This document shows positions 4,218 to 58,329 of a stretch of 64,000 nucleotides of DNA, in pieces. Below the pieces are notes generated by a model that saw nothing but the letters and a program-made list of their open reading frames with translations, did no database searches and was not told the DNA's origin. The number at the start of each line of letters is the position of its first letter. Positions within the stretch are counted from its first letter, which is position 1. This DNA comes from Cannabis sativa (lineage: Eukaryota > Streptophyta > Magnoliopsida > Rosales > Cannabaceae): assembly GCF_029168945.1 (NCBI RefSeq), contig NC_083604.1:48479686-48543685 (forward strand), written 5' to 3'. The position numbers were made by a program, and so were the translations under genes.

Positions 4218-4254
<37 letters not shown>

Positions 4255-4262: not shown

Positions 4263-4283
4263 ATGTTTTCTTTTGTGTGGTGG

Positions 4284-12291: not shown

Positions 12292-12293
12292 GT

Positions 12294-14191: not shown

Positions 14192-14419
14192 AGAACTCCA
14201 CAGTTAAACATGCTTGACCTGAGGTAATTTCAGGATAGGTGACCTCTTGGGATGTTTTCCCAGGAAACATGCGAGTGAGGACAGAGCACGCTAGAAATAC
14301 TCGTGTTAGTTTGTAGGGCCAGTCGTTAGTCTAGGAAGCAGCCAGAGTGGTTTACTTATGTATAAGACTCATTAGTTCGTGGGGGAACGCCAAATGGAGG
14401 CTTGAAGCGGGATGTTATA
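14192..14419 (+). mobile_element. Cassandra LTR, right part, after the copia insertion
   Basis: Resumes with AGAACTCCACAGTTAAACAT, which is close to plant 5S rRNA (AGAACTCCGAAGTTAAGCGT). The 5S-like C-box region AGGATAGGTGACCTCTTGGG follows. It ends near the expected GTTACA terminus, here mutated to GTTATA. Together with 2698-2850 it makes one complete LTR. Confidence 0.8.
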
Positions 14420-27062: not shown

Positions 27063-27128
27063 GTGTTTTTTTTTTTTTGGCTAGTTCTTTTGGGTACGAA
27101 GTTTTAAGACCCACTAGAAAGTAGAAAA

Positions 27129-30100
27129 ATGGCTATAAATTGTTGGAGACTACTGCCTAAAACTCCATTTTCTACAAAGCCCAACTCTGTCCTTCCAGTT
27201 CCACCATCTTCCTCCTTCTCAAGACGAGCCTCTCTAGTTGTAGCTGCTGCTGCATTTTCCCCAATGACTTACGATAAGGAGCTCGCTGCGGCCAAGAAGG
27301 CTGCCTCTCTCGCTGCTACACTCTGCCAGGCATCGCTCACTCACTCTCTCTTTCATTATCTATCTATCTATCTGTTGATTCTGTATATAAGTTGTATATA
27401 TGAGTTTCTCTATTTCTGCAGTATGAGAAATTGCTGTATTCCTAAAGCCCAGAACACTGATTAAAGATTTAAGAATGAATTTCTAGTATGGAACATCTGA
27501 CGTTTCAAATCATCTTTTGAGCAAAACCCACGCAGATTTTAATCTAGTTTCTTCTTTTGTGTGGATTTAGCTGTTGTTGTAGTTATCGACCCATTAGAAA
27601 ATTGTGGCGATAGGTTACCGATTAAATTTACTTAGTTGCAAATCGAAATAATATTATTTGGATGTTATGGTGTTTGGGGGTTTAAGTTAATGTTTTCCTT
27701 CTAATGCCAATATGGATGGTCGTCTTTCTGCTCATATCCTTGCTGTACCTTCTTATCTTTGGCCTGTTAAGTTAAAGTATATATATATATCTATAGATAT
27801 ATATATATAGTGAAATCTAGAGGTAATAGGTCTCATTTTGTGCATTATACTTCCCATAGTTTTATTCATTACATTTAGCGAACACTAGTTGGGAAATGTT
27901 TTTGGTCAAGGATATTGATTCAGTTGATTTCAAGTTTGTTTGTTTGTTTGTTTCTCAGAAAGTGCAAAAGGCACTGTTGCAATCAGATGTTCATTCGAAA
28001 TCAGATAAAAGTCCTGTTACTGTGGCCGATTATGGTTAGTTTTTATGTATTCCTATGTGTTGACTTTTTTAACAATTTGACAATTTAATGTGTATCTTGA
28101 TTTAAAAGAAGGTACATAATTATGAGTATCATCTTTCCTTTATTACTTGTACTAAATTCAGGTTCACAGGCTGTTGTTAGTTTTGTATTGGAGAAGGAAC
28201 TTCCTACTGAATTATTCTCTCTAGTGGCTGAGGAGGTGAATATTTGGACTTCCGTAGTCTCCTTGATCTTCTTTCTCTCATTAGTTGTAAATTTAAGTTA
28301 ATCAACTTCCCCAGGATACAGGAGATCTTCGCACGGAAAGTGGCCAGGAAACACTACAACGCATTACAAAACTTGTAAATGATTCTCTTGGGAATGAGGA
28401 AGTGTATGCTGATACACCTTCATTGAGCACAGAAGATGTGCTTAGAGCCATTGACCATGGAGAATCTGAAGGCGGTGCTGTTGGCAGGCACTGGGTTTTA
28501 GATCCAATAGATGGTACAAAAGGGTAAGCTTCAAAACTTGAATTATATACAACGTTTTGAAAGTTTTTTATCTTCATCTTCTTCAAATAATATTGTATCC
28601 TCACATAAATAATTAGTGAGTAGTTACCTTATTTTTCCATGATTGAAGAATAACGTGTGGTATGTTTGAGCTTGAGTATAACCCTCATGTCGAATATCTT
28701 TTGCAACTTAAAGTCAACTTTACACCACAGGACAAAGAAGAAAAGTTGAAAGTCTGTCAAAGGATAATAAACTAGCTAACTACCAAACCCTTATTTACAA
28801 CTCTCCATGTTCTCTCTTCTTGGATAGCAGATGGTGTTATTGCTAATGTACATTCATCTAGACAGTTGTAGAATGAATGGGGAAGAGTTTATACAGTAAC
28901 ATCTTTTCAGGGACTTAATCTTTATATGGTATATTTATTTTCCCAACATAATTTTGCACTTGTGCCCACATCTAATAAAGGAAATAGGATTTTCTCCCGG
29001 AATATGGTATTGTAGAGTTTTAGCCCTTGATTTCTTTTGAAAAAAATCCTCCAGAACTATAACAATCATTGACAATTGTACCGTAGGTTTGTCAGAGGAG
29101 ACCAATATGCCATAGCTTTAGCATTGCTAGATGAAGGGAAAGTAGTCTTGGGAGTTCTTGCTTGTCCAAATCTTCCTTTGGCATCCATTAATCAACATTC
29201 ATCAGAATCATCACATGATAAAGTTGGTTGTCTTTTCTTTGCCAAAGTTGGTGAAGGAACATATATGCAGTCACTTGATGGTTCTTCACCAGTGAAGGTC
29301 GATGCCTGCTCACATTCACTTATTTCATTATGCATTTAATTATTATTTTGATAGATTTTCTCATCAAAAAAGTCAAAAAAGTAGGCATTCGAATTTTGAA
29401 ACTGTAACTTATTACATGTGTGGTGTCCCCAGGTACATGTTAGTGCTATTGAAAATCCAGAAGAAGCATCGTTCTTTGAATCTTTTGAAGCGGCACACTC
29501 ATTGCATGACTTGTCTAGCTCCATAGCTAAGGTAATGCACATATTTTGCAGTTAACTTCTAAGCTGGCTGTCATTTTCCTTAACATCTTATTTATCACAG
29601 AAACTTGGTGTCAAAGCACCGCCGGTTAGAATTGACAGCCAGGCAAAGTATGGGGCACTCTCAAGAGGCGATGGAGCCATATACCTTCGTTTCCCTCATA
29701 AAGGATACCGGGAGAAGATTTGGGATCATGCTGCAGGATGTATTGTTGTGACCGGTAAGCATATTACAGTTTCCAAGTAATCTTATTTGTCATTCTCTTT
29801 TCTTGGGTTGAAGTTGCCTGCTAGCAGATATACTCGATGCAGGGAGGTATCCGAATTTCCATAGTAAAGTAAAGCAACTGATTCACTTCTCTTCCTGTAT
29901 TTTTAACGCCTGTTTGTTGATAAACGTAATTTACAGAGGCTGGTGGTGAGGTTACAGATGCTGCAGGGAACCCATTGGATTTTTCTAAAGGAAAATATCT
30001 TGATCTTGACACAGGGATAATTGTTACTAATAAGAAATTGATGCCATCACTATTGAAGGCAGTTAGAGCATCAATTGAAGAGAAGGTTTCTTCCTTGTGA
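27129..30100 (+). CDS. SAL1: 3'(2'),5'-bisphosphate nucleotidase, SAL1/FRY1 type, 8 exons
   Basis: Exons: 27129-27329, 27959-28034, 28162-28235, 28315-28523, 29087-29297, 29433-29531, 29601-29754, 29937-30100. All phases agree, giving 395 residues, near the usual family length. The enzyme removes the 3' phosphate from 3'-phosphoadenosine 5'-phosphate (PAP) in plastids and mitochondria; in Arabidopsis this controls PAP retrograde stress signalling and sulfur metabolism. The first ~45 residues are Ser/Ala/Pro-rich with a few Arg, a probable transit peptide, followed by MTYDKELAAAKKAASLA. Metal-binding motifs of the inositol monophosphatase fold are present: LVAEED (113-118), DPIDGT (180-185) and WDHAAG (331-336) with EAGG after it. 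Intron 1 starts with GC (27330) and ends with AG (27958); all others are GT-AG. No frame damage is seen. The start is the first ATG after the TATA box. Confidence 0.95.
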
Positions 30101-30130
30101 TTCATTTCGTACCATTGACTGTTAATGTCA

Positions 30131-30136
30131 AATAAA
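30131..30136 (+). terminator. Polyadenylation signal of SAL1
   Basis: AATAAA lies 31 bp after the stop codon, followed by T-rich sequence. It is close to the stop; alternative signals further downstream (AATAAAAG near 30250) could give a longer 3' UTR. Confidence 0.5.
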
Positions 30137-30139
30137 TGT

Positions 30140-30605
30140 GTCAATATAAGAATTTGTGTTTTTTTATGTTTGGCAAGTCATGAGACAGAGGTGGATATGT
30201 TTTCATGTAAGCCTCATGATTATCCAAACCTGAACATGCTTGAAACTTCAATAAAAGTGATTTCTTCCCATTATTGGGAGTTGCTATGGCCAAATTTTGT
30301 TTAAGATAAATTATATAATGTGAGGAATAAGTAGAAAAAGACTGTTTGTAACTTCAAATGAAAGTGATTTTCCCTTCGTTAACGTTTTAATTATTGTTAT
30401 TGTAGAGACATTACTTTTTACAATACACCGAATTTCAGTTATTAAATAGACTCTCTTTGCCTGGAACTTTGGTTCTGAGTTTACAATAACACATCGTAAA
30501 AAGTGAAGAAAAATGAGTTTTTTTTAGTAGTGCTTTTCCTTTACATTGGGACTTTGAAATGGTGATATAATATGAATTTGACAAAAAAAAAAATATCCAT
30601 AATGT
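30140..30605. other. Short intergenic stretch downstream of SAL1
   Basis: Contains the probable SAL1 3' UTR and AT-rich sequence. An A-run at 30582-30591 precedes the LINE insertion. Nothing else recognised. Confidence 0.5.
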
Positions 30606-32385
30606 GTTTTTTTTAATGCAAATAACAACTTTATTAGATGCAAACTTCAGCTACCAGACAAGGTAGCAAATCAGTAGGAATAGACTCCATATTAAAAAAA
30701 CAATCAGGATATAACATAGCAATTAAGATATAACATAGTAACTTTCGCGAACTTATGAACCACCACATTGTCAGATCGATTAACAAAAGAAACCAACACA
30801 TTCCTCAAACTTGCAAGCAAGTTTTTACACTCATTAATAATCACCCCAAATAAAGAAACCATAGATAAAGGACTCTGTAAAGCTTGTACTAAACATAAAC
30901 AATCAGTTTCCACTTTACACTATTGAAAGCTTGATTTCTTTATCCAACTAAGAGCTTCCCGAACACCAATGGCTTCAGCAAGGGCAGGTTCCACTTGGGC
31001 ATGAGCTAAGATGGTACGTCCTTCAATCAACATGTTGTTGTTGTCTCTAGCAACCATACCCAAACCATAGCTCCGTCCCTCGTAAAATATTCCTGTGTCG
31101 ACATTAATCCTCACACTATTTGCTTCATGAGAAACCCAATGCCCATTTCCAACCGTAAGCTAACTTGAAGCCTGTGTTGTATCATTTTTTCGAGCATCAA
31201 TCCGTTGGTGAAGATAAGTTTTTGCAACAACAACTATATTATCAGGTCGCACCCCTTTTCGATTCCATACAAAATCATTCCTTGCACCCCAAATCGCCCA
31301 ACAAGTGACTGCCAACATACATTTCAGGTCATTGTTAACTGCTTGAAACGCCTCCCTACACCAGTCAAAAAAAGTAGCTCCAGGAGTCGTTTGAGTGCAT
31401 ATTCCCACACTGTCTCAGCATGTCCTGATTACACTGCAAGTGACTAAGCAATGGAGAACGGTCTTCTCATGCTGACAACAGATCAGGCAAATGCTTGATA
31501 CATCAACCCGCTTGATACAGAGGTGTGTAAGGGTCGGCAGACAATTCGCACCAGCCCTCCACACCAGGTTAGAAACTTTTGGAGGAAGTTTCAGGCTCCA
31601 AAGTTTACTCCAGAACAAAGACGCTTCATCCTCGAACCATCTGCCTTTTAATTTTTGGAATGTTGAGTATGCACTCTTAACAGAGTACATACCCGAAACC
31701 TCTTTACACCAGAACAAGTGGTCAACGGTTGATGTGAGTTTCAATGGGATACTAAGAATCAATTGTTGATCCCTATCATTGAAGAGATCTGCAACTATTT
31801 CTTTATCCCAAGTTAAATCATCCAAAGTAATTAAATTAGACATAGACGCACCAGCAAGAGCATGGTGGTCCGATTCCACCATGGGGTTGCTGTCATCAAG
31901 TAGCCACGACTCACCAAGAACTGGGATAAAACTTCCATTGCCTATGCATTATCTAATGCCACTCTTCAACAGGTCTTGAGATTCTAGAATGCTTCCCCAC
32001 ACAAAGCTCGAATTGGCTCATATTTGGGAAAATAAAAACGTACCATGTGGAAAGTATATAGCCTTAAACACCTTTGACACAAGAGAGTTTGGCTTTGTCA
32101 AGATTCTCCAACCATGCTTACCTAATAATGCAAGATTAAAATCGTGCAAGTCACGGAACCCCATGCTGCCACCGTTTTTGTGTTTACTTAGTTTGTCCCA
32201 CGACATCCAATGAAATTCTTTTCGATCTCTATTAGACTGCCACCAGAACTTATTCATAAGCTTCTCAATTTCTCGAGTGATATCAAGGGGTAAAAGCAAC
32301 ACACTCATGGCGTAACTCGGTAATGATTGGACCACAACCTTCACTATCACTTCAATATCTCGTATGTGTTTTAAGAAGATGGATA
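30606..32385 (-). pseudogene. 5'-truncated L1-type LINE ORF2 (RT end, zf-RVT, RNase H)
   Basis: Read on the minus strand, the C-terminal part of a LINE reverse transcriptase comes first (32350-32018: SYAMSVLLLPLDITREIEKL and GGSMGFRDLHDFNLALLGKH). Next is the zf-RVT region (31882-31415: FWSKLWSLKLPPKVSNLVWR). The RNase H domain is split between two ORFs (31114-30920: MRINVDTGIFYEGRSYGLGM; 30913-30704). It ends in a T-run on the plus strand at 30606-30613, the A tail of the LINE. Truncated before the RT catalytic core, with several stops, so inactive. AATATCCATAATGTG on the left and AATATCTCGTATGTG near 32354 on the right may be a diverged target duplication. Confidence 0.85.
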
Positions 32386-33640
32386 CCTAAGGACTCTATT
32401 ATACATGGCAGCTTTTAGGGTGGGATGTCATGTCTGATTCAGAGTAGAAAGTAGAAGTATCTTTTAATAAAATAGTTTTACGTAAAATTGATCTTAACTA
32501 TAAGTCCTAAGATTTTCACATGATTATATAAATTAGCATGATTATATAAATTAAATTTACATTACAAGCAAAATAATTTTATTTCTTTGTCCCTATTAGG
32601 GTTTTTTTAAATTTTTTTCGTAATTTATATCGAACTTTCAATCCAAACACCGAATGAACTTGATGAAGATCATTTAAACTAAACACTTAATGAACTTGAT
32701 GAAGGCTTCACATTAGTGTCTACCAGATCAAACCCTCAACATTTATAATAAGAGTGGGTTTACAAAAATTAAAACAAAGGATGTAATTTTTTATTAGCAC
32801 TCAATTCATCATGCACTGTGAATTGAGATGAGAGAAATCACAACTTTCACTAGAGATAGAAAGAGAGGGAGACACTATTTGGGTTAGAAAATTATAACGC
32901 ATAATTTCTTATCACCAACCAACTAAATACATATTATGTATACTAGGTGGATGATACGTGCCAAGTCACGTATTGTTAGTTTTATTTAAAGTTTTAGTTT
33001 TTTTTAAGATTTTCCTAAATAAAGTAATATGATTATTTGAACGATTTGTTTTATAAAGATAAGTGAGTCAATGTATTTGGTAAGTAAACATAGCTGTGTC
33101 TATAAACGTGTGTGATATGTACATTGTTATTAATAATAAAAAGTACTTCTAACCCCAAAAGACAACATTGAGTAAAAGATTTGGCCACAAAGTGAAGCCA
33201 GAAGAGAACAATGAATAAGCCCACCAGTAAACAATAAGTTAAATTTGGTTTTGATGCACATAATTTGATGTTAAGGGCATCGTAGTGATGTCAGATGATG
33301 AAACATATGCTCCAAAACTTGCAATCCACAGCCATGCAACATTAAGAATTGTTCTTAATCTTCCTCCATTATTCAAAATATTGTTTGAAAAGTTGATCAT
33401 CTGCCATTTTAAATCACAGAAGCTTGATAATTATTTAAAAATTGCAGCAGAGGTAGAGGAAGATCGTGTGTATGTTTATATGTAAGGTCAAGACTACAAC
33501 ATGTGTAATAAATTGCAAGCTTTTTACAAAATTATTGCAAGAGCAATCAGCTAATAACTAAGTACAAAATAGAAATCATGTTATATAGGGGAGCAAACAA
33601 AATTTTAGAATAAACTCACAAGAGATCTTATATGCGAAAG
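32386..33640. other. Intergenic, no gene recognised
   Basis: AT-rich. A 66-codon plus-strand ORF at 33285-33485 has no recognisable motif. TAACCCCAAAAGA at 33150-33162 recurs inverted at 36119-36131 and might mark one border of the gene-fragment cluster that follows. Confidence 0.45.
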
Positions 33641-33651
33641 CAAGAGGACTA

Positions 33652-33900
33652 CTAAGTTCTAAAGCATGTATATATGGGATTATATATCCAGAAACTCAAA
33701 ATATCATCTTCAAAAATTGGAAAAACTCCATATATACCAAGGAAATGTAGAAACCTGAAAAACTCCAAAGAGTTTTTAGTATTGGCACTTTCTTTCCACT
33801 GATATGCTACCTTTATTGCATCTTCTCTCAAGTGAGATTCAATTCTTGAGATGAGATTCCCCCAATAGCTGCTCAACAAAAAAAAAAGATAACTCGTCAT
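33652..33900 (-). pseudogene. FRIGIDA-like protein fragment
   Basis: A minus-strand frame contains REDAIKVAYQWKES...KNSLEFFRFLHFLGIYGVFP, then FEDDILSF. This follows the conserved block of plant FRIGIDA-like proteins (EA..LA..WK......NSLEVLGFLQLLA.YGL...F..DEL). Only about 60 residues of the several-hundred-residue family protein are present, so it is an isolated exon fragment. It lies on the same strand as, and about 1 kb downstream of, the MFS transporter exon, and belongs to the same mosaic of fragments. Assignment is by pattern and not certain. Confidence 0.5.
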
Positions 33901-34843
33901 GACACTTTTATTTATTTATTTATTTTTTTAAATCAACATCTCCACTCTTCCAAAGTTTAGAAAAATGCATGTATATGCTTAGTTTTATTTATATAATATA
34001 GTATTTAATTTTATACATGATGATATAAAGAAGAGTGGTAAGCACTCTCTATTTGTGTCAATTCATTAAGGAAAACATGGTCAGAACTCTTTTGACTTGT
34101 GGTTGAACTGGATAGAAAATTTGGATGTTTTCTCCATGTCAACTACTGATTGAAAAAAAAAAATTGTAACAAAAAAATAAATTATAACAACACCACAGAT
34201 TACTTGCACTACATCGTGTATTTTAAGTTCTCTTTTGTCATTTATGAGATGTTTTAACTTTTGAGCATTTCTGTTATCTAATATCAAAAGCATATGGCAC
34301 TTCACTGAAGATAATATAACTAAAACCATAAAAATTGTAATTAACTAATATAATTGCAATTACCAAATAATGAAACAAATTAACAAAAAATAAACCAGAG
34401 CAATTTTCATCATAATGTTAATACAATACACACATTCACATGATAGTCTCACTAATAATTGTTGAATTTCAATAGTGACATTCATGTTGATAACTTTTCA
34501 ATTTATCTTCAACTCTCAAACAATGACTATTACAAAAATCATCACAAAATAAGATAAATATTTAAGTTTACCAATGTCTTAAAATGGAAAATAAAATTAA
34601 CAAGATTCATTGCCAAGAACAACAGTTGCTGAAGAGCATTAACCCTAAGCTATTAAATAAACAGATTACATTCTGGCTACAATGTAATGAGTATCCTCAC
34701 CTTAAATAGATTATGCAAACTAAGTTCTAAATTTTTGGAAGAGAGGAAATTCTAATATGTTGATGTTCTGCTAGTATAACTAATGAATTAAGATTTAGAA
34801 GTAGAGAAAAGCACTGATGAAGAAAATAGATGAGTAAACTTAC
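33901..34843. other. Intron-like or spacer sequence within the gene-fragment cluster
   Basis: AT-rich, stop-filled sequence between the MFS exon and the FRIGIDA-like fragment. No further MFS exons can be found here; a genuine MFSD5-like gene would continue for many more exons. Confidence 0.5.
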
Positions 34844-34985
34844 ATTAAGTCAGATACTACTCCTAAGATACCAAAGAATATAGAGACTCCAGTTCCTACC
34901 CAGAGAGACAACACTATGTGTTCCCCACTCACACCGTAATATGCAAGCTCCATTTCACCAAAAACTGACCATAATCCTTCAACAA
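34844..34985 (-). pseudogene. MFSD5-like transporter exon 2 fragment
   Basis: The minus strand has an acceptor (GGCAG) then VVEGLWSVFGEMELAYYGVS and ...VLSLWVGTGVSIFFGILGVVSDL, ending at a consensus donor GTAAGT. This matches the second exon region of the plant major-facilitator family related to MFSD5 molybdate-anion transporters: a transmembrane helix, the conserved GLWSVFGE...YYGVS loop, then a second helix. It splices in phase with the first MFS exon only in that exon's original frame, not in the chimeric frame. Confidence 0.65.
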
Positions 34986-35177
34986 CTGCCAGTAGTGGGT
35001 TATAAATAAAACATCATTAATAGAAGAAAACTAATTGAAACACACTCTGCTTTTCTGTTTGGTTGCCGAGAAAATTTAAGAAAGAACCAAGAAATTTCAA
35101 AAACCTCAAATCAACCAGTCTTACTGCTTGCGATGCTCAAATTTTCATTTCATTATCATGTCAAATTAATTCAACTT

Positions 35178-35859
35178 TCAAAGATTCAACAAACTTTCTA
35201 CATTGCCTACATGTTGTACGACACCCAACTTTTTGAAAGATGGATCAATACGTGAAGTTAAGGAAGTGTGCACAGACCTGAAGCAAGAGAGTAAAGGAGA
35301 ATAAAGTTCCTTAAGAAACGAGGAAATGAAGAGGAAGACGACTCCATGGTCGAAAACAACAGGAGTTCTGCTACTGCTGCTGAAATTCTTAGAGGCGTAA
35401 GGGAATAAAGCGATTGAGAAGACATAGACCAAGAATAAGAGAGTATACAGCGATGGATTTGGCTCCCAAATGGAGCTCTCAATAACCACGACTATTGATT
35501 CTCTCCACTGAACCTCTTTTGTCTGGAAAATCATCCCCAATTGTTTACTAAATTTACGATTCACATACCTAAACATCAATAACAAAAATAGATTATCAAA
35601 AAAATCCTTCAAGTAACAAAATTTAAGCAGGGAGGTATATGATCTAGGTTCAAAGAAAGTACTGATTCATCAGCGATGTCTTCCCAACCCTGGCAAAAGA
35701 ATTATACAAACTATATTTCAATACAATGATCAGCCCTTCATTATTTCAAATCAAAACGCAAAATTCATTCTAATCAATACATATAATAATAATAAAAAAA
35801 AATTACTCGCTGTCGCCGAGGATGATCACCTTTAGGAGCATACGCCTACGAGAAGCCAT
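35178..35859 (-). pseudogene. Chimeric gene: RAB7 (RABG3) N-terminus fused in frame to MFS transporter N-terminus
   Basis: Minus strand. Exon 35859-35807 encodes MASRRRMLLKVIILGDS, the start of plant RAB7/RABG3 GTPases. Exon 35689-35663 gives VGKTSLMNQ, the P-loop. The third exon starts at 35568 with YVNRKFSKQ, then loses about four codons and shifts frame relative to RAB7 around TKEVQ. At about 35500 it passes directly into VVIESSIWEPNPSLYTLLFL, the N-terminus and first membrane helix of an MFSD5-like transporter. The joined ORF is open for about 156 codons to 35178. The transporter frame itself is broken near 35345: the proper continuation SSSFPRFLRNFILLYSLASG is in another frame, ending at donor GT after 35278. 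The P-loop reads GDSEVGKT, with Gly to Glu at the exon joint. Probably a pseudogene, but promoter, introns and a chimeric ORF are in place. Confidence 0.65.
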
Positions 35860-36131
35860 TGATGGAATTAAGGTTTTATGAAATTCGAAATAAAAAATGA
35901 GAGAAAGAGGGGTTTGAACAATGACAAAGAGTATTCACCAATCGATGTATATTTGTTACCTTCGTAGAAATCGTGGAATAGGAAGAAGAATGCAGCAGAG
36001 ATAGAAGGTAAAAAAATCACAGAATTAATGGAACTTTGATTGTGAAGAACTGTCTCCTATTATATAATTCAGGTCTATACATTTAAATTTCATTAGGTTT
36101 TAACGGAGCAAGGATGGTTCTTTTGGGGTTA
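35860..36131 (-). promoter_or_regulatory. Probable captured RAB7 5' UTR and promoter
   Basis: The sequence upstream of the RAB7-like ATG has a UTR-like TTCAAACCCCTCTTTCTCTC stretch and a GAAGGTAACAAA donor-like site near 35955, so it likely came along with the gene fragment. The inverted repeat partner of TAACCCCAAAAGA lies at 36119-36131. Confidence 0.35.
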
Positions 36132-36179
36132 AATTTAACAGAATATTCTTTTATTTGTAAAGTATATTCTGTTAAACCA

Positions 36180-36600
36180 AAAAATACCATTAGATAGACA
36201 CTTTTAATATATAAAGATATCATATATATATATATAAATATTTAAATCATATAAATTAATCTAATAAAATAAAAATATATTATTTTTTATTAAAATTATA
36301 ATATTTATTTATGAATAATCATATTTAGTTATATTTTTATTTTATAATCTTTTTAAGTTATAAGTATCTTATCTATTATCCAACAAAATATTTAATTAGA
36401 TAATAAAATGAATAATTATTATTTATTTTGATTAATATTATTCAATAATAAAAAATCAAAATAACCATATTTAGTTATATCTTTATTTTATAATCTTTTT
36501 TAATTATAAATATCTGATTAAATAATAAAATAATATTTATTATATATTTTGATTAATCTTATTTAATAATAAAATAATCAAAATAAATCTCATGGAATTT
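36180..36600. repeat. AT-rich region with two imperfect direct repeats
   Basis: Two blocks share ATATTTAGTTATAT(T/C)TTTATTTTATAATC followed by related AT-rich text, starting near 36327 and 36467, a spacing of about 140 bp. A TA microsatellite is at 36222-36236. No coding sequence. Confidence 0.55.
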
Positions 36601-36756
36601 TATATGTCACCCTAAACAGGGCCGCCCCTAGGCATAGGCGGGCTAGGCCCATGCTTAGGGCCCACACTTTTCGGGGGCCCAAAATAAAAAATAAAAAAAA
36701 TTATTAGACTTTTATTTAAGTAAAATGAAGTGTATTTTAAACAAAAAATATTGATA

Positions 36757-36784
36757 GCTTAGTTGGTTAAGATATATGACATAT
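36757..36784 (+). other. tRNA-like A box, separated from its B box by the SIRE insertion
   Basis: TAGCTTAGTTGGTTAAGA resembles a polymerase III A box as in tRNAs and tRNA-derived SINEs. If the 10.2-kb element at 36785-47013 and one target copy are removed, the B-box-like GGGTTCAAATCCC at 47030-47042 lies about 40 nt downstream, a tRNA-like spacing. Upstream at 36616-36680 is a GGCCGCC/GGGCCC-rich stretch. Confidence 0.45.
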
Positions 36785-37909
36785 TGTAAAGTCCTTTTTT
36801 GGCAAGTTAGGTGACAAAATAATTTTTCATTTTTATGGTAAGATTGCTTTGCATTAATTTTCGAAATCTTACCTCTTTTATTCGGTTATAAGTTGCCATT
36901 TTCCTTGTTTGGAAAGTTGCACTTTCAGCTGAACTTTCCTTTGTTGAAAACTTCTCAAAAGAGAAGGAACTCTCTTTTGGAAAGTTGTCATTTTAAGGGA
37001 AACTTTGATTATTGCCTTTTTCCTTATTAATTTCGATTGTATCTTGATACAATCAGAATATCTAATCTGTTTTTGGCAGGAATCAAGCTTTGAAAGAAGA
37101 TCGGACCCGATTTTAGTAAGTTTCCCGTTTCTGGGCAGATCTGCTTCGTCGGCAACCGAATCGATGTAGCAGATCGTGTTTGTTTTTGGAAAGTTTTGTC
37201 TGTTGCTAATTCGAACTTGTGGTTGCCTCTTTGGTTTCTATGATCTATAAATAGAGCCTAGAGAGCAACCATTCGAATGACCTCTTCCAATATTCATTTT
37301 TTGCATTTATCTTTTGTGAGAAGAGAGTGTTTCTTTGTTTTGTGAGAGCCTAGTTGTTCACCTAGGTTCTAGTTGTTCTATTTCTGTTCTTACTCTATCT
37401 TAGAGGTTGTGAAGAACTACTGATCGAACAAGAGATTGGTCTTCGGGAGAAGACTTGATTAAGCCTTACTTCGGGAGGAAGTAAGCACTTGGTCTTCGGG
37501 AGAAGACTTGCTAAAGCCTTACTTCGGGAGGAAGTAAGCACTCACACTTCAAAGACGAAGGGAGTTCGGGCTTGAAGGTGTTTCAAGAAGTCAGATTCAT
37601 AAAGTGGATTACAAAGGATTGCGGCAATACTTTAGAGGGAGTCTAAACTTGTTTAAGTCAATTGTCTTTGTAATTTTGATACTTTATTAATTGATTTCAT
37701 TCTCTGGCGTGGCCCGTGGACTAGGAGTGTTCGTGAGAACAACGATACCACGTATAAATCTCTTGTGTCAAGTTATTTATTTTTACGCAAAATATTTTAT
37801 ATTACGCCTGTTCGGTTTTCTTGTAGCAGAATTACTTTTCGCCGCAAACGATTACGAGTTTTTATATTTTCTTATATATAGCCGACATTTGCAAAAACAC
37901 GGTTTTTCA
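36785..37909 (+). repeat. 5' LTR of the SIRE-like element
   Basis: 1,125 bp. Contains TATAAATAGAG at about 37246, a likely TATA box, with the transcript start about 30 bp downstream. A pair of TCTTCGGGAGAAGACTTG / ACTTCGGGAGGAAGTAAGC repeats lies at 37440-37540, present in both LTRs. Confidence 0.9.
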
Positions 37910-37926
37910 ATTGGTATCGAGCGGGA
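37910..37926 (+). other. Altered tRNA-Met primer site
   Basis: ATTGGTATCGAGCGGG follows the LTR end. The expected site is TTGGTATCAGAGC; here CAG reads as CG, a one-base loss that matches the pattern of other changes in this element. Confidence 0.7.
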
Positions 37927-37966
37927 CACTAAACTCTTAGTGTGGTCCTATAACGTTTTTGTTAGA

Positions 37967-39108
37967 ATGTCATTTTTTGCAGAAGGAAGTTCTATTTCTA
38001 GACCACCGTTGCTTAATGACTCTAACTATCCTTATTGGAAAGTTAGAATGAGGGCCTTCATCAAATCTCAAGATGAGAAGGCGTGGAGAATGGTTCTATC
38101 AGGTTGGTCTCCTCCGGTTGAGTCGGATTCTTCGGGTAATACTATTATAAAATCTGACTGGAATGGTCTATTGAAGATGATAAATTATCTGCCTACAATA
38201 GCAAAGCCTTGCATGCTATCTTTAATGGTGTAGGTGAGGGTTACATTAAACTTATATCATCTTGTGTTTCTGCTAAGGAAGCTTGGGAGATTCTTCAAAC
38301 TCAGTTTGAAGGAACTTCTGATGTGAAAAGATCTAGATTTATCATGCTTCAAACTAAATTTGATGAGCTTAGAATGTCTGATAATGAAACTTTAACTGAA
38401 TTTTATGAAAAATTATCGACATTGCTAATGAATATTTTGCTCTTGGAGAAAAGCTTGATGATTGTTCTTGTGAGAAAAATTGTTAGAGTTCTTCCGGAAA
38501 GGTTTGATACTAAACTTTTGGCAATGGAGGAAGCTAAAGATTTTAGCACTATGAAAGTGGAAGAATTGATGGGTTCCTTACGTACTTTTGAATTAAATCA
38601 ACGATTAAACAAAAGGACAAACCCAAATCCATTCTTGATAAAGGTAAAAGTATTGCTTTGAAAGTTGCGATAATGAAAATTCTGATAGTGAATGTGATGA
38701 TGAGATTGCTTTATTAACTAAGAATTTTCAGAAATATATGAAAAAGATGGGAAATAAAAAGAACATATCAAAAGGTTCAATAGGTAATTCTTTCATTAAA
38801 CCTTCTGTCTCTAACAAAAAGGGAATTCAGTGCAGGGAATGTGAAGGTTTTGGGCATATTCAAGCTGAGTGTGCAAACACTTTGAAAAAGAATAAGAAAA
38901 GTTTCAATGTCACTTGGAGTGATGATGAAACCGAAAGTGATGAAGATATTGCTGAAAATGTTGCCCTAACCTCTGTTATGACTAATGTGTTGTGTGATTC
39001 ACAGGTGAAAGCTAGATTGGTATGTCTGAATAATACCACCAAACAAGAGGAATCGGATTCGGATGAGTCGAAATCTGTGAAGAATCTCTTGCTGAATCAT
39101 ACAAAGTC
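37967..39108 (+). pseudogene. SIRE-like gag, with frameshifts
   Basis: The ATG at 37967 begins MSFFAEGSSISRPPLL, then NYPYWKVRMRAFI, the conserved start of copia gag. ALHAIFNGVG and AKEAWEILQTQFEGTSDVK, typical of the gag (UBN2-like) domain, follow in another frame after a one-base loss near 38170. A second shift occurs near 38620 and a third at 38667 (GTTGCGATAATG, one base short). A zinc knuckle CRECEGFGHIQAEC is encoded at about 38832. An acidic C-terminal part leads into pol. The protein would form the virus-like particle and bind RNA. The Met at 37691 in the LTR is not used, since it lies upstream of the primer site. Confidence 0.8.
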
Positions 39109-42100
39109 ATGTATGAAAAATGGATTCAGGTTGCTTCTGAAAATAGAGAGTTGAATAAATTGAATAAAAAATTGTCTCATCAGATTGAAATGTGTGATTT
39201 GAAAATAAAAGAATATGAGACAAGTTTTTGTGATAAAGATGAAAAAATCTCTCTATTAAAGAAGGAACTTGAAAATTTTAAGAAAAATGTTCAAATGCTT
39301 AACCCTGGATCTTCTATTTTTGAAAAAGCTCAGAATGCAGGTCAGAGAGGTTTCGCAGGCCTTGGTTCTAATGGAATGGAAAGTTCTGGAGTCACGAAGT
39401 TTGTAAAATCTAGTGTTCCAACGAATCACCTTGAGGCTACAAACTCTGCCGTAACAGTTTCACAGCCTGTTACAGCAAGAACAGCTTCTGACGCTGCAAA
39501 ATCTCCAGGATTTTTAAAAAGGGTAAGATCTCAGGTAAAAAGATTTATTCCCATTTGTCATTTTTGTGGTAGAAAAGGACATATCAGACCTAAATGTTTC
39601 ACGTTGAACAATCTGTTTAAAATAAATTATTTTGATAATTTGAAAAAATCTCAAAAGAAACATAAAATTTTGAAACAAATATGGGTGAAAAAGAAGTGTC
39701 TAGCTGGTTTTTCTGATAAAACTGCTGTATCTCAAATGTGGTATTTTGACAGTGGTTGCTCTAGACATATGACAGGTGACAAGGATTTTTTGACTAACAT
39801 TCGGCCTATGCAATGTGGAGAAGTCACTTTTGGTAATGGCCTATCTGGAAAAGTTGTTGGTATGGGAACTCTAAATTTTGAAGGGTTACCTAAACTGAAA
39901 AATGTGATGTTAGTTGAAGGACTGAGGGCTAATTTACTTAGCATCAGTCAAATCTGTGATCAAGGGTTTACTGTTTCTTTTGATAGTGATCATTGTTATG
40001 TTCTGAATGATGACAATGAATGTATCTTGCAAGGATTTCGATCCAATGATAACTGTTACACTCTAACCCCTGTGTTTACTTGTCACTCAGCTATCAACAA
40101 CACCACAGATCTGTGGCATGCCAAGCTTGGGCATATTAATTTTAAAAACCTGAAAAAATTGTCAAATGCAGGTATTGTTCGAGGTCTTCCCAAGCTTGGT
40201 AAGGAAAGTGAAGGTAAGTGTGAACCGTGTCAACTTGGGAAGCAATTAAAAATCACTCACAAGCCTGTGTCTGATATCAATACCTCAAAGGTATTGGAAT
40301 TGCTTCACATGGATCTTATGGGTCCAATCCAAGTTGAAAGTTTGAATGGTAAACGATATATCTTTGTGTGTGTTGATGATTTCTCTCGTTTTACTTGGGT
40401 AGATTTCTTAAGAGAAAAATCTGACACTTTTGATGCCTTTAAAACTCTTTGTCTGAGATTAAGAGTTGAGAAAGGTTGTAATATTGGGAAAATTGTTCGA
40501 ATTCGAAGTGATCATGGTAAGGAGTTTGAAAATTCTGTGTATGATGATTTTTGCAAGTCTACAGGTATAACTCATGAATTTTCAGCTCCCAAAACTCCTC
40601 AACAAAATGGAGTTGTTGAGAGGAAGAATCGAACATTGCAGGAAATGGCAAGAGTGATGTTAAATAGCAAGAAGTTGACAAAGCGCTTATGGGCTGAAGC
40701 TATTAACACAGCTTGCTACATAATAAACAGAGTGTTTATTCGTCCAGGTACCTCAAAAACATCTTATGAAATCTGGAAAGGTAAGCGCCCCAATGTAAGT
40801 CATTTTCATGTTTTTGGATGTGTGTGTTATGTCTATAGAGATCGTGAGCATATTGGTAAATTTGATGCTAAAAGTGATGTTGGTGTGTTTATTGGATATT
40901 CCTTAAACAGTAGAGCTTATCGTGTTTATAACATGAGAACTCAAATTGTTTTGGAATCAGCTAATGTGGTTGTTGATGATTTTAGAGATTTTTCAGAGTT
41001 TTCCACAGAAGCCAAGATAGATAGTCTCATGGATATTCCTCCAAAAGTTGTAACAACAGATCCTGATGCAGCAGAACCCATTGCTGATGCTGCAAATGAC
41101 GAATCTGCTGCTGCAACTGAAACTGGAGAACCAGAACCGTCTATCTTGACTCATCCAAACATCATCACTGACTCTATTCAGAAAGAACCAAGCACCAGAG
41201 TCAAACTGAATCATCCAAAAGATCTCATCCTTGGAAATCCTGAAGAAAGCATGGTAACTCGCAGAAGGTACATTAATTTAATCAGCTTTCTTTGCTTTGT
41301 TTCTCAATATGAACCGAAAAATGTGAAGGAAGCCATGACCTTTGAGGAATGGCTCAATGCAATGCAAGAGGAACTCAACCAATTTGTTCGCAACAAGGTA
41401 TGGATTTTGGTCCGAAGACCAAAAGGTATAAATGTTATTGGAACAAAGTGGTTATTTAAAAATAAAAGTGATGAGTTCGGTACAATTGTGAGAAACAAGG
41501 CTCGTTTGGTGGCACAAGGGTACACTCAGGTAGAAGGTATTGATTTTGATGAAACTTTTGCTCCTGTTGCAAGATTAGAATCAATACGTTTACTTTTATG
41601 TATTGCTTGTATTCTCAATATTAAATTGTTTCAAATGGATGTGAAATCTGCCTTCCTTAATGGTATTTTGAATGAGGAAGTTTATGTTGAGCAACCAAAA
41701 GGATTCGAAGATCCTCAATTTCCAGACCATGTATACAAACTTGAAAAAGCTTTGTATGGACTGAAACAAGCTCCTCGAGCTTGGTATGAAAGGTTGACTC
41801 AATTTTTACTTTCTCATGGCTATCACAGAGGTAGTGTGGATAAAACTCTTTTCATCAAACATATAAAATCTGATTTTATCATTGCTCAAATTTATGTTGA
41901 TGATATAGTTTTTGGGTCTACATCTAACCATGAAGTGCAGGTATTTGTTGATCAAATGAAAAGTGAATTTGAAATGAGCATGGTTGGTGAGCTTAATTTC
42001 TTTCTTGGTCTTCAAGTGAGACAAATGGAAGGAGGTACATTTGTATCTCAAAGCAAGTATGCTAAGAACCTTGTCAAGAAATTTGGCCTTGAATCGGCTA

Positions 42101-42838
42101 AGCAGGTAAGTACTCCTATGAGCACCACACTGAAATTAACAAAAGATGAGAATGGAGTAAAGGTAGACACTACACTCTATCGTAGCATGATTGGAAGTCT
42201 TTTGTATTTAACTCGCTAGTCGCCCTGATATATGTTACAGTGTGGGAGTGTGTGCTAGATATCAAAGTAATCCTATGGAATCTCATGTATCAGCTGTAAA
42301 AAGGATTATTAGATATGTTAATAGCATTCCTGATTATGGAATTTGGTACTCGAAAGATACCAATTCAAATCTTGCTTGTTTTAGTGATGCAGATTGGGCA
42401 GGAAATGCGGATGATCGAAAGAGCACAAGTGGAGGGTGTTTCTTCCTTGGGAATAATCTAGTATCTTGGCATAGCAAGAAACAGAATTCCATCTCCTTAT
42501 CCACTGCCGAAGCTGAGTACATAGGCTGTTTGGCGAGTTGTTGCACTCAACTATTGTGGTTGAAACAAATGTTGATTGATTATGGGTTTGATTTGGGTGT
42601 TTTGACTATTTTTTGTGATAATACTAGTGCCATAAATATTTCCAAAAATCCTGTTCAACACTCTAGAACAAAGCACATTGATATAAGACACCACTTTATT
42701 AGGGAACTTGTTGAAAATTAATCATTGCAATTAGAATATGTTGATACTGAAAAACAATTAGCTGATATTTTCACAAAGGCCCTAGATGCAAGTCGCTTTG
42801 ACTCCCTCAGAAAGTCTTTGGGAGTTTGCATTGTTTAA
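39109..42838 (+). pseudogene. SIRE-like pol: protease, integrase, reverse transcriptase, RNase H
   Basis: A 1,036-codon ORF (39109-42219) plus a shifted remainder. Coiled-coil-like N-terminus, then a knuckle CHFCGRKGHIRPKC (about residue 150) and protease motif WYFDSGCSRHM (D214). The integrase zinc region LWHAKLGHINF...CEPCQLGK is followed by a catalytic D402, D468 and E504 triad; the last two are 35 residues apart, as in copia integrases. Reverse transcriptase has QMDVKSAFLNG and the YVDD box at about 929. A one-base insertion at 42212-42215 (CTCG for CTG) breaks the frame at LLYLT. RNase H follows at 42242-42721 (FSDADWAGNADDRKSTSG, STAEAEYIG, CDNTSAI). A stop at 42719-42721 precedes ADIFTKALD and the true end near 42838. 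Confidence 0.9.
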
Positions 42839-43997
42839 TTTTATCTGTTCATCATTCGTGTACAATAGTGTTGTGTGATTCTTCTCTAGCTCTAATTCTT
42901 CTATCATTGTTTTTGACAAATCATGTTTATGCTTTTGGAATATAATTAGTTAGGATCTCTGTCTGATCATACTTTGTGATGTTGTTTTAAAAGATTCATG
43001 TTACTCTTTATTTGTGTCTGGGATTAAAAAATGTTCTTATACAGAGTTGAGCAATTTTTGTTTCATGCTTGTCAGGCCCCTTGCTGGAATAGAGCTACCC
43101 ATACTGAAGTGTGAAAGCCATCTGATGAGTAAGCTGGAACATTGTAATTAGCAACTATGATGAGGATGCACTACCATAGAAAAGGGCTACCTTCAGTATG
43201 GTGTGAAAGCATCCAGTTGCGGGATCAATTTGAAAAAGGCGAAAATGAAAAATCATGCCAAGGACAATGATCCTATTTTCACTGCACACACTTATGTCTG
43301 ATAAGTGTGTTCAACTCTGTAAGTCTCCTCTATTAAAATTAAATTAATAATCATGGTTCACAATTCTCAGTAACATGCATATCTTTTTCTTCAACATCAA
43401 TTAAGTATGATCATCTCATGAGATTCTAATTAGTTATTTTCCTTGAAAGCATAAAATGTAATCTACTTTGTCAATTGTCAATGATATTTGATCTCTCTGC
43501 TTGATTCGAATCACATATACTCACTGTACACATTTTTTTTTAGTTTCGGTTTTATTTTAAAATAAAAAAAAAAAAAGGGGAGGCGTGTGACTTGCTTCAT
43601 GGGTCAAGGAAAATCTTGTGCATAAATGGTAAGTATCAACATTCATTCTTTCTTTGATTTATTATGATATTTTTCCAAGTAAAGATTAATCTTTATATGG
43701 TAATGTGTCTTTATTCTTGAAAGATTGCTTTATTTTTGGAAAAATTTGTTGGCATTTCTAGTTTCCTTTTATTTTTTTAAAAAAAAAAAGGAAAGGGGAA
43801 AGGAGTTGAGAAGTGGGCGGTTTCCTCTTTTGGTTCATGGGCTGGCGGTTTCAATTGATTTTTCAAAATTGGTTTCCTTTTTCTTGTTTTGATTCCAAGG
43901 TTATATAAACCAAATTTTGTCACTTATTTCACCACCTACCCGAACCCTCTTCTTGTTCCTTTGTCAGACACTATTCATCTTCTATTTCAGTTTCAAA
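42839..43997 (+). other. Spacer between pol and extra ORF
   Basis: Non-coding. Holds A-rich runs at 43561-43576 and 43777-43793 and a GGGTCAAGGAAAATC stretch. A TATATAAACC near 43902 and the CACC/CTTCTT-rich sequence after it could be an internal promoter for the extra ORF, but that is speculative. Confidence 0.4.
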
Positions 43998-45564
43998 ATG
44001 GTGAGAACCAAAAATCTAGGGCACTCAAAAAAAATTAGAAGAAACCGTCCCAACTCCTTCTAGTGCACCCCCTGCTGCCTCAGTTCCTCCTCCTGCTATT
44101 GCAAAGCCTGGAGATTCATCGCTTCCCCAGCGTGAATCTCAAGCCGAGAAGCCAAAACGTCCACCCAAGCAAGTTGCTCGCAAATCTGTAAGGCCCTATC
44201 GCACCTGGACTTCGTCGTCTGAATCCTCGAAGGAATCTCCTCCTCCATTGGCTGTTCCTCCTCCTGCTGCATCAATGGCTGGCACCACTCCAACAGGCCC
44301 TTCCACTCGAACTCGAGCCCAGCAAGCCTCGGCTGAGAAAGAACTTCAAGCCTCTCAATCTCGAGAGAAGTCTGCTCCTCCAGCCAAGAAGAAACTCAAG
44401 ACCAATCCTCCCTCGGCTTCCTCGAGTTCCAGTTCAGAAGAAGAGGATCCAATGGAAGTCTCTTCAGACAAATCAGTTTCTCTGCATACTGAGAAGGACA
44501 GTGAGGACACAGAACTCGAGCCAGAGCCTCCTCGTTCAAAAACTGCTTCTGCAGCAAAGGCCTCTGCTGCTGCCAAAGGCAAGCAGCCCATTGAAGATCC
44601 TCCATCTGGTAATATCCCTTCCTCTATCTCTGGCTGTCCAACTTTTTACTATCGAGACAATGAGCGTGACTGGAATCTTTATGCAACTCGTAAGTTTGAA
44701 AGTGAGAGGAATTATGATTTGCATGCCCATCGTGTTTATGGTATTGTAAAGTTCATCCAATTTCATCAATGGGAACACACTCTTACTGGTTTTATTGGAT
44801 TCATTGCTAACATTATTAAAGAATTTTATGCTAATCTTGCGATGATTTCCTTGATGAGAACTCTAGTTGTATAGAAGAGTGTATGTTAGGGGTCATTGGT
44901 TCTCATTTTCTGAAAAGGACATTGCTCAGGCCCTGCAATTGCCTGAGAATGTTTCCAATGCTGTGATGTCCATGGATCGTGACCTGATGCACTCTGAACT
45001 CACTGGTGCACGTTCAGAATTGAAACCAGGGGAGAGTCTTCGAATTACTCACCTCACCTTTGCTCATGCTTCCCTTATGCGGTTTGCACTAAGCAATTGG
45101 GTTCCAAATTCGAACAAGACCGTGGTGTCTCAAGAAGTGGCTACACTCCTATACCGCATCACCTCTGGAACTTCCATTGATCTAGCCTCTCATATTCTCA
45201 ACCAGATTGTCTCCTTTCGAAGAGGTAAAAAGCCAACCTTCAAACTTGTGTTTCCAAATTTAATCTATAAGGTTTTATCCTCTCAGAAGAATGTGGCCCA
45301 AGCACATGAAACACTTGAGCCTCCCATCACTGGCCCTACATTCCAACCTTCTGAGTATTTTGATGGTGTGTTCCAAAAACGGCCAAAGGCTGGTCTTTGC
45401 GCCCCGCTTCGCCGTGGTGCAAGTTCGAGCTCGCTGGCTGGGCAGAGCTCCTGGAAGTCAAGTCAGAACTTCAGAATGTGTACACTCGTCTTGAAGCAAT
45501 GGCTGATGTCCAGCATGACATGTCCAGGCAACTGTCCACCTTAATTCAACTCTCCAAACATTAA
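43998..45564 (+). pseudogene. Extra ORF of the SIRE-like element (putative plant transposon protein domain)
   Basis: Starts MVRTKNLGHSKK at 43998. After a one-base A-run shift near 44030 it continues as a Pro/Ser/Ala-rich, then Glu/Ser-rich low-complexity region. The domain with CPTFYYRDNERDWNLYATRK, EFYANL, VYVRGHWFSFSEKDIAQALQ and SHILNQI is the pattern I know as the putative plant transposon protein domain found in extra ORFs of copia and gypsy elements. Shifts near 44839 (GCGATGAT) and 44872 break it. The C-terminus (LLEVKSELQNVYTRLEAM, then DMSRQLSTLIQLSKH) is a likely coiled coil ending at TAA 45562. About 520 codons. SIRE elements often hold an env-like ORF here; no signal peptide or membrane segment is seen in this one. 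Confidence 0.7.
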
Positions 45565-45880
45565 AGTGTTATAGTTTGTTTCTTTTTACTTAAACTTTGG
45601 TTTATTTTTGTTCTTTGTTTACTTTGGCACTCCGATAAACAAAAAGGGGGAGAGATATTATATTTGTGTTGCCCAACTCTGGACCCTTTTTTTTCAGGGG
45701 GAGTTGTGGTTTGTTAGTACTTATGAACTTAATGTTTAAAGTTAGCATGTTCTTTGTGTTCATTGTGATATTCGATTGTGTTACTCAGGGGGAGTAGTAT
45801 TGTTTGCTCTTGCTAACTTTGCATTGCAGGTACTTTATGAAAAAATTATTTTGTTCATCTAAAGTGCCAAAGGGGGAGAT
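45565..45880 (+). other. Spacer and polypurine tract of the SIRE-like element
   Basis: The G-rich motif AGGGGGAG recurs (about 45645, 45697 and 45789), and AAAGGGGGAGAT at 45869-45880 abuts the 3' LTR as the polypurine tract that primes plus-strand synthesis. Repeated tract-like motifs upstream are a known feature of SIRE-type elements. Confidence 0.75.
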
Positions 45881-47013
45881 TGTAAAGTCCTTTTTTGGCA
45901 AGTTAGGTGACAAAATAATTTTTCCTTTTTATGGTAAGATTGCTTTGCATTAATTTTCGAAATCTTACCTCTTTTATTCGGTTATAAGTTGCCATTTTCC
46001 TTGTTTGGAAAGTTGCACTTTCAGCTGAACTTTCCTTTGTTGAAAACTTCTCAAAAGAGAAGGAACTCTCTTTTGGAAAGTTGTCATTTTAAGGGAAACT
46101 TTGATTATTGCCTTTTTCCTTATTAATTTCGATTGTATCTTGATACAATCAGAATATCTAATCTGTTTTTGGCAGGAATCAAGCTTTGAAAGAAGATCGG
46201 ACCCGATTTTAGTAAGTTTCCCGTTTCTGGGCAGATCTGCTTCGTCAGCAACCGAATCTGATGTAGCAGATCGTGTTTGTTTTTGGAAAGTTTTTGTACA
46301 GCTGCTAATTCGAACTTGTGGTTGCCTCTTTGGTTTCTATGATCTATAAATAGAGCCTAGAGAGCAACCATTCGAATGACCTCTTCCAATATTCATTTTT
46401 TGCATTTATCTTTTGTGAGAAGAGAGTGTTTCTTTGTTTTGTGAGAGCCTAGTTGTTCACCTAGGTTCTAGTTGTTCTATTTCTGTTCTTACTCTATCTT
46501 AGAGGTTGTGAAGAACTACTTGACTGAACAAGAGATTGGTCTTCGGGAGAAGACTTGATTAAGCCTTACTTCGGGAGGAAGTAAGCACTTGGTCTTCGGG
46601 AGAAGACTTGCTAAAGCCTTACTTCGGGAGGAAGTAAGCACTCACACTTCAAAGACGAAGGGAGTTCGGGCTTGAAGGTGTTTCAAGAAGTCAGATTCAT
46701 AAAGTGGATTACAAAGGATTGCGGCAATACTTTAGAGGGAGTCTAAACTTGTTTAAGTCAATTGTCTTTGTAATTTTGATACTTTATTAATTGATTTCAT
46801 TCTCTGGGCGTGGCCCCGTGGACTAGGAGTGTTCGTGAGAACACTGATACCACGTATAAATCTCTTGTGTCAAGTTATTTATTTTTCTGCAAAATATTTT
46901 ATATTCTGCCTGTTCAGTTTTGCTGTAGCAGAATTACTTTCTGCTGCTGCAAACGATTACAGTTTTTATATTTTCTTATATATAACTGACATTTGCAAAA
47001 ACACGGTTTTTCA
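45881..47013 (+). repeat. 3' LTR of the SIRE-like element
   Basis: 1,133 bp, TGTAAAGTCC...GGTTTTTCA. Very close to the 5' LTR over the first 350 bp; most differences are clustered at CTG and CAG triplets in the second half. Followed by the target copy CATAT. Confidence 0.9.
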
Positions 47014-47018
47014 CATAT

Positions 47019-47240
47019 TATACAATGTCACGGGTTCAAATCCCATAACACTTTTTTTTAAATATTTTTTTTATATATATTTTTGAGGGCCCCAAAATCT
47101 AATTCACCTTAGTCCCATATATTCCCTGACCTTAAACGTGTTGATCCTAGCCCCACATGTGTTGATCATATTTTAAAGCATAAATCAATTTTGTCTTAAA
47201 TAAATTTATTATTCATTTTATAATAGATAATAGTTGATTA
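47019..47240 (+). other. Right flank of the SIRE insertion with tRNA-like B box
   Basis: GGGTTCAAATCCC at 47030-47042 is a B-box-like match. It is followed by T- and A-rich sequence and GAGGGCCCC, which mirrors the GGGCCC-rich stretch on the left flank at about 36655-36680. The interrupted unit may be a tRNA-derived SINE or another short element. Confidence 0.4.
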
Positions 47241-49913: not shown

Positions 49914-49995
49914 ATTTGGGGCAGTTTGACATAACTTATCACCCACGAACATCCATCAAGGGCCAAGCCTTGGCAGATTTCTTGATAGAAGGAAT
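49914..49995 (+). pseudogene. Gypsy RNase H end, interrupted by copia
   Basis: The plus strand encodes LGQFDITYHPRTSIKGQALADFLIE, the well-known end of the RNase H/connection region in Tat-type gypsy elements. The frame continues across the copia insertion at 60226 when one copy of the target duplication GGAAT is removed, proving the two pieces were once one gene. Confidence 0.85.
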
Positions 49996-58310: not shown

Positions 58311-58327
58311 CCATGGCTCTGAGGCCA
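58311..58327 (-). other. Primer site with two changes
   Basis: The minus strand reads TGGCCTCAGAGCCATGG, differing from TGGTATCAGAGCCATGG at two adjacent positions. It lies 2 nt from the LTR at 58330. Confidence 0.8.
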
Positions 58328-58329
58328 GT

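What the first reader, a model, noticed from the sequence alone, without database searches (positions are those of the whole stretch)
33652..35859. Mosaic of three gene fragments with an in-frame RAB7-MFS fusion
RAB7/RABG3 exons 1-3 (with introns) run directly into the N-terminus of an MFSD5-like transporter within one open frame of about 156 codons. A second MFS exon and a FRIGIDA-like fragment follow on the same strand. Unrelated genes joined with introns kept is the signature of capture by a Pack-MULE, Helitron or similar DNA element, and can create new genes. The RAB7 promoter region is retained, so the fusion could be transcribed. The transporter part is frameshifted and the P-loop has a Gly to Glu change, so a functional product is unproven.
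Basis: partly seen in the sequence, partly recalled or inferred. Interest (0 to 1): 0.78.

Follow-up and report, generated by a model that had tools for sequence, protein, structure and literature searches.

The report
Gene-capturing Helitron transposon in Cannabis
The three joined gene pieces are passengers inside a 3.3-kb rolling-circle transposon (a Helitron) of a Cannabis genome that picked up bits of host genes and copied the mixture to other chromosomes; this is a well-known process, and nothing found here shows that the fused gene does anything.

Summary
The mosaic is real. It lies inside a 3,275-bp non-autonomous Helitron on the minus strand, window 36217 to 32943. The window's own genome (770.7 Mb, by its proteins Cannabis sativa) holds three more full-length copies on other contigs. 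All four start TCTTTATAT, end with a hairpin plus CTAG/CTAA, sit between A and T, and have unrelated flanks. Parents: a RAB7 tandem pair (85% DNA identity), a molybdate-transporter-like MFS gene (94%) and a FRIGIDA-like gene (about 80%), on three contigs. A weak fourth fragment matches a methyltransferase family. One element with like ends elsewhere encodes a Rep/helicase, a plausible source of mobility. Corrections: the carrier is a Helitron, not a Pack-MULE (no terminal inverted repeats found), and no RAB7 promoter is kept, only 58 bp of leader. The fused frame is open in all four copies, and three copies match Cannabis gene models (one of which lacks the RAB7 part), but it diverges about as fast as its surroundings, and an open frame would survive by chance with probability 0.44. 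Verdict: well-resolved new member of a known kind, probably a non-functional passenger.

The parts
32943..36217 (-). Whole non-autonomous Helitron, 3,275 bp
   Evidence: Homology among four copies stops at these ends, within the few bases allowed by AT-rich flanks; A before, T after.
36128..36217 (-). Helitron 5' end, TCTTTATATATTAAAAGTG...
   Evidence: Same start in the three other full copies; related 5' ends in L014 (TT instead of TC), L019, L020, a second site in L011, L051 and L052.
35860..35918 (-). Remnant of RAB7 5' leader (58 bp aligned); no promoter
   Evidence: Blast against RAB7 parent locus L013.
35807..35859 (-). RAB7 exon 1 (MASRRRMLLKVIILGDS + 2 nt)
   Evidence: tblastn with Rab7 P0042, 17 of 17 residues identical; parent alignment.
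35663..35689 (-). RAB7 exon 2 (VGKTSLMNQ)
   Evidence: Splice sites and parent alignment.
35507..35568 (-). RAB7 exon 3 piece, with 13-nt deletion and 1-nt insertion
   Evidence: Alignment to both RAB7 parents.
34543..35506 (-). MFS (MFSD5/molybdate-anion-transporter-like) piece: exon 1, intron 1, exon 2, part of intron 2
   Evidence: 94% identical to L012 over 975 bp.
35278..35495 (-). MFS exon 1; start codon changed in this copy only (of four); 2-nt frameshift deletion shared by all four copies
   Evidence: Alignment to parent.
34844..34985 (-). MFS exon 2; one codon deleted relative to parent in all four copies
   Evidence: Alignment to parent; tblastn with P0001.
35178..35859 (-). Spliced RAB7-MFS open frame, 156 residues plus stop (three exons)
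   Evidence: Open in 4 of 4 copies.
33490..34210 (-). FRIGIDA-like piece (two aligned blocks, 34210-34132 and 33965-33490)
   Evidence: PF07899; 82% and 79% identity to gene at L016, whose frames hit PF07899.
33242..33385 (-). Weak fourth fragment, methyltransferase (PF03141)-like
   Evidence: 24.0 bits against cut-off 23; recurs in repeated loci.
32943..33146 (-). Helitron 3' region shared with many loci
   Evidence: 28 of 43 match rows reach the query end, own copy included; 1,055 first-look candidates, 40 scored.
32943..32973 (-). 3' terminus: hairpin ATACGTG-ACTTGG-CACGTAT, 7-nt spacer, CTAG, followed by T

Best explanation
A non-autonomous Helitron acquired pieces of at least three host genes (RAB7/RABG3, an MFSD5-like molybdate-anion-transporter gene, a FRIGIDA-like gene) with introns and in sense orientation, and was then copied by a Rep/helicase supplied in trans to at least four sites. 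Shown: termini, A|T insertion, copies with unrelated flanks, parents on different contigs, one Rep/helicase-encoding element with like ends. Inferred: rolling-circle copying, mobilisation in trans, capture in several steps (parent identities about 80%, 85%, 94%), and that the RAB7-MFS reading frame is a neutral by-product.
For: Four full-length copies of 3,275, 2,476, 2,476 and 3,350 bp share both ends, lie A|T in 4 of 4, and differ by 0.8-2.9%. The 3' 204 bp recurs across the genome, and in five loci tested with a longer query homology stops at or just past the terminus. Parents found in the same genome. A 12,751-bp element on C1 has the same 5' end, a related 3' hairpin-CTAG end, A|T flanks and an 1,130-codon open frame with PF14214 and PIF1 helicase. 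A 5-nt stretch (TTCAG) is shared by both parents at the RAB7-MFS junction.
Against: The 3' hairpin is modest: taken alone, an equal or better one arises in about 2% of simulated 1.4-kb stretches of like composition, and seven other sites in the window score higher. Its stem is 7 bp in the window copy and 6 bp in the other three. The C5 copy ends in CTAA (allowed by CTRR). Of the Rep/helicase loci examined (ten 3.5-kb loci, L041-L050, and four places fetched with more sequence), only the C1 one shows these ends, and I chose it because a listed 3'-end match lay nearby. No empty site from another haplotype could be checked.
Confidence: 0.97

Rival explanations
1. A Pack-MULE or other TIR element captured the fragments.
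For: Gene pieces with introns are typical Pack-MULE cargo (recalled; start of the abstract of PMC1947982 in the listing). One of four flank comparisons scored 36 against a best of 34 in 20 shuffles, with arms far from the cargo ends.
Against: The other three comparisons scored 32, within the shuffled range; no inverted pair of 25 nt or more in 30000-40000. Copies end at Helitron termini; no target duplication evident by eye.
Confidence: 0.01
2. The fused RAB7-MFS frame is a young functional chimeric gene under selection.
For: Frame open in 4 of 4 copies; one in-frame codon deletion in the C2 copy; pN/pS below 1 in all six pairs, 0.43-0.96. Cannabis gene models match the C5 (P0002), C10 (P0038) and C2 (P0004) copies.
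Against: Exons diverge about as fast as the rest of the element (1.1-3.4% against 0.7-2.8%); chance of no nonsense change with 21 substitutions is 0.44; counts are tiny. Most of both parent domains is missing; the transporter part is out of frame after about 50 residues; no RAB7 promoter. The gene models are predictions that splice differently: P0038 skips exon 2, P0004 starts at the MFS part and runs into unrelated sequence.
Confidence: 0.04
3. Three adjacent host genes decayed in place and were never captured.
For: All fragments lie on one strand in one block.
Against: Parents lie on C1, C4 (23 Mb away) and C2; the same fusion exists at four sites with unrelated flanks.
Confidence: 0.005

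Closest known systems
Gene-capturing non-autonomous Helitrons of maize (PMC3288121, passages seen; PMC4528327, start of abstract and passages seen)
   Same: TC and CTAG ends, 3' hairpin, A|T insertion, several host gene fragments in one element, stepwise capture.
   Different: Host is Cannabis; this family's terminal sequences and cargo were not compared with maize families.
Mothra, a high-copy non-autonomous plant Helitron (PMC4683698, passages seen)
   Same: TC/CTAG ends with a 16-bp hairpin near the 3' end and a captured gene fragment carried by the family.
   Different: No sequence comparison made; the mother element reported there lacks RepHel, whereas one RepHel-bearing element with like ends was found here.
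Pack-MULE
   Same: Transduplicates host gene pieces with introns (recalled).
   Different: Has terminal inverted repeats; none found here.

Membership tests
Helitron | 5' TC terminus (PMC3288121, PMC4683698) | tested here: met
   4 of 4 copies begin TCTTTATATA[TC]TAAAAGTG.
Helitron | 3' CTRR terminus | tested here: met
   CTAG in 3 of 4 copies, CTAA in 1.
Helitron | 16-20 bp palindrome/hairpin about 10-12 bp from the 3' end | tested here: met
   Window: 7-bp stem, 6-nt loop, stem ends 11 nt from the terminus; the other three copies keep the TACGTG/CACGTA core. Weak if taken alone.
Helitron | Insertion between A and T | tested here: met
   A before and T after in 4 of 4 copies; empty sites not available.
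Helitron | No terminal inverted repeats | tested here: met
   No inverted pairs in 30000-40000; flank alignments near shuffled scores.
Helitron | Multiple copies with the same ends and different flanks | tested here: met
   C4, C10, C2, C5.
Autonomous Helitron | Encodes its own Rep/helicase | tested here: not met
   Pfam scans of reading frames in the element showed no Rep/helicase, and no PF14214 match row lies in the window (C4:48479686-48543685); hence filed as non-autonomous.
Pack-MULE | Terminal inverted repeats with 9-11 bp target duplication (recalled) | tested here: not met
   for the repeats; target duplication only looked for by eye.
RAB7/RABG3 GTPase (functional) | Complete GTPase domain | tested here: not met
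   Only about the first 51 residues, with an internal deletion; Pfam Ras matched over profile positions 1-42 of 162.

The most novel reading that the evidence does not exclude
The Helitron-borne RAB7-MFS fusion is transcribed and translated in Cannabis and has gained a role, for example as a small membrane-anchored competitor of RAB7, or the copies feed small RNAs that silence the three parent genes.
Probability: 0.04. Interest if true: 0.55.

Novelty: new member of a known kind. Interest (0 to 1): 0.27.

Why it matters
It is a clean worked example of Helitron transduplication in a dicot crop: ends, copies, parents and a candidate Rep/helicase source in one genome. It also indicates that three Cannabis protein records (P0002, P0004, P0038) derive wholly or partly from gene fragments carried by a transposon and should not be read as ordinary genes or gene fusions.

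Tried and rejected
Rejected: Pack-MULE (no inverted repeats); decayed neighbouring genes (parents on other contigs); the hAT-like GGGCCC end at 36617 as the element border (it faces away from the finding). A protein search for the FRIGIDA parent found nothing at E<=1 among 4 candidates; the genomic search then gave a gene with 563- and 231-codon frames, both matching PF07899. The PDB sequence search gave only weak matches to complement C5, E 0.039 or worse, taken as chance. The parent of the methyltransferase-like piece was not settled: its matches lie in repeated loci. The origin of 36077-35933 (absent from the C10 and C2 copies) and a genome-wide count of the 3' end were not obtained, because the genome search stayed busy. 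A genome search with Rab7 itself was sent once, not answered and not repeated, so other RAB7 genes may exist that are closer to the captured piece.

Full report
Check of the observation. The minus strand of window 35859-35178 holds RAB7 exons 1, 2 and part of 3, joined to the start of an MFS transporter gene; MFS exon 2 and a FRIGIDA-like piece follow. The spliced frame is 156 residues plus stop. The best protein match of the MFS piece is a Cannabis sativa molybdate-anion-transporter-like protein (P0001, 89%); a Cannabis gene model, P0002, is a RAB7-MFS chimera like the window's. A search with P0002 gave 160 proteins at E<=0.001, 120 listed. The three best, P0002, P0038 and P0004, all Cannabis, stand apart (545, 221 and 208 bits; the next has 92). 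Of the listed proteins I read P0002, P0004, P0038, P0042 and P0057 only. P0002 and P0038 are chimeras; P0004 starts at the MFS part.

The element. Upstream of RAB7 the minus strand reads A|TCTTTATATATTAAAAGTG (from 36217), and far downstream a hairpin, a short spacer and CTAG|T (ending at 32943). These were proposed as Helitron ends from the window alone (notebook). The hairpin alone has about a 2% chance in a comparable 1.4 kb, and seven other sites in the window score higher. The window's own genome then tested the proposal. From 22 match rows, the query's own site and sites on C10, C2 and C5 proved to be full-length copies. With flanks included, their homology begins and ends at the proposed ends, within the few bases that AT-rich flanks allow (the C5 blast block runs 35 bases further upstream through TA-rich flank). 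Lengths are 3,275, 2,476, 2,476 and 3,350 bp. All four lie between A and T, and their flanks look unrelated. Pairwise differences are 0.8% (C10-C2) and 2.6-2.9% for the other pairs. At a recalled plant rate near 7e-9 per site per year that would be very roughly 0.5 and 2 million years.

Family and machinery. A search with the 3' part found 43 match rows from 40 scored of 1,055 first-look candidates; 28 rows, own copy included, reach the query's end. Since the query stops at the terminus, that alone does not show a border. In L009, L010, L011, L035 and L037 a longer query stops at the terminus or runs at most 19 bases into AT-rich flank. The genome has 99 Helitron_like_N match rows. On C1 an element of 12,751 bp has the same 5' end, a related hairpin-CTAG end (5 substitutions), A|T flanks and an 1,130-codon open frame with Helitron_like_N and PIF1 helicase domains. 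I picked this locus because a listed 3'-end match lay near it. The ten short Rep/helicase loci (L041-L050, 3.5 kb each) and the three other places fetched with more sequence (L053 with L054, L055, L056) showed no such ends. That the C1 kind of element moved this one is inference.

Parents. RAB7: a tandem pair on C1, 85% over window 35918-35507 for the better one, introns included. MFS: C4 near 71.75 Mb, 94% over 975 bp. FRIGIDA: C2 near 76.33 Mb, blocks of 82% and 79% in a gene with PF07899 frames. Degenerate relatives of the FRIGIDA piece lie at L014, L015 and L017, and L014 also has a related 5' end. A further piece passes the Pfam cut-off for a methyltransferase family by 1 bit and recurs in repeated loci. 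The differing identities fit stepwise capture, as described for maize (PMC3288121, passages), but unequal constraint on the parents, or closer parents not found, could also contribute.

Junction and damage. RAB7 sequence ends near 35507 and MFS 5' leader begins there, with a shared TTCAG. All four copies carry the same 13-nt deletion and 1-nt insertion in RAB7 exon 3, the same 2-nt deletion in MFS exon 1 and the same lost codon in exon 2, so these predate the spread. The P-loop Gly became Glu in the window and C5 copies, Ala in C10 and C2. Of the four, only the window copy has lost the MFS start codon. The RAB7 promoter is not carried: the best parent match upstream of the ATG is 58 bp.

Function. 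Gene models P0002, P0038 and P0004 match the C5, C10 and C2 copies by diagnostic residues; whether they lie at the same sites in their own assemblies was not tested. In favour of a gene: the frame is open in 4 of 4 copies and pN/pS is 0.43-0.96 across six pairs. Against: the exons differ by 1.1-3.4%, other sites by 0.7-2.8%, and 21 random substitutions would leave the frame open with probability 0.44 (the simulation ignores indels). Transcription could not be tested. I take the fusion to be a passenger. Reports that some maize Helitrons are transcribed as chimeras, and that captured sequences can seed silencing of donor genes, keep the bolder reading possible (PMC4528327 and the review PMC13317346, passages).

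Literature. A search for Helitron with Cannabis sativa gave 25 papers, 15 listed. The Cannabis pangenome paper (PMC12286863, passages only) mentions Helitrons near genes and near cannabinoid synthases, with no hit for 'gene capture' in its main text. A search for any three of Cannabis, Helitron, gene capture, captured gene and RAB7 gave 20 papers, 10 listed, none of whose titles or abstract openings describes this element. Most subscription papers are not held, so this is no proof that the element is undescribed.

Changes made on re-checking: methyltransferase piece coordinates corrected, Pfam support added for the FRIGIDA parent, the negative Rep/helicase loci and the selection of the C1 locus stated, and the reading of P0004 limited.

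Noticed in passing
36783-47013: Copia-type LTR retrotransposon with about 1.1-kb repeats (97.4% identical over the aligned 1,136 bp) directly beside the Helitron, with RVT_2 and integrase domains and, downstream, an open frame matching Pfam Transposase_32.
   Followed up: partly
36617-36782 and 47014-47110: GGGCCC-rich sequence resembling a hAT end, with tRNA-like box motifs, apparently split by the copia element (labels recalled; sequence).
   Followed up: partly
27108-30097: Probable host gene of the inositol monophosphatase family on the plus strand (four exon pieces hit PF00459, three above cut-off); looks like a SAL1-type nucleotidase (name recalled).
   Followed up: partly
49995-60225: Pair of 1.9-kb direct repeats, 99.6% identical, LTR-like, related to repeats at 2843-6119 and 12293-14199.
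   Followed up: no
L051 and L052 (C1 near 3.85-3.86 Mb): Rep/helicase-bearing Helitron followed within about 50 bases by another 5' end and further ends of the same kind, suggesting close insertion of family members one after another.
   Followed up: partly
L011 (C5), window-equivalent near 35251-35180: The C5 copy carries a 112-nt tandem duplication just after the fused frame's stop, and another Helitron 5' end lies about 0.5 kb beyond its 3' end.
   Followed up: no
L018 (C7 near 18.82 Mb): Isolated piece, 91% identical to window 35744-35558 (RAB7 intron-exon-intron), possibly from an earlier RAB7-bearing element.
   Followed up: no
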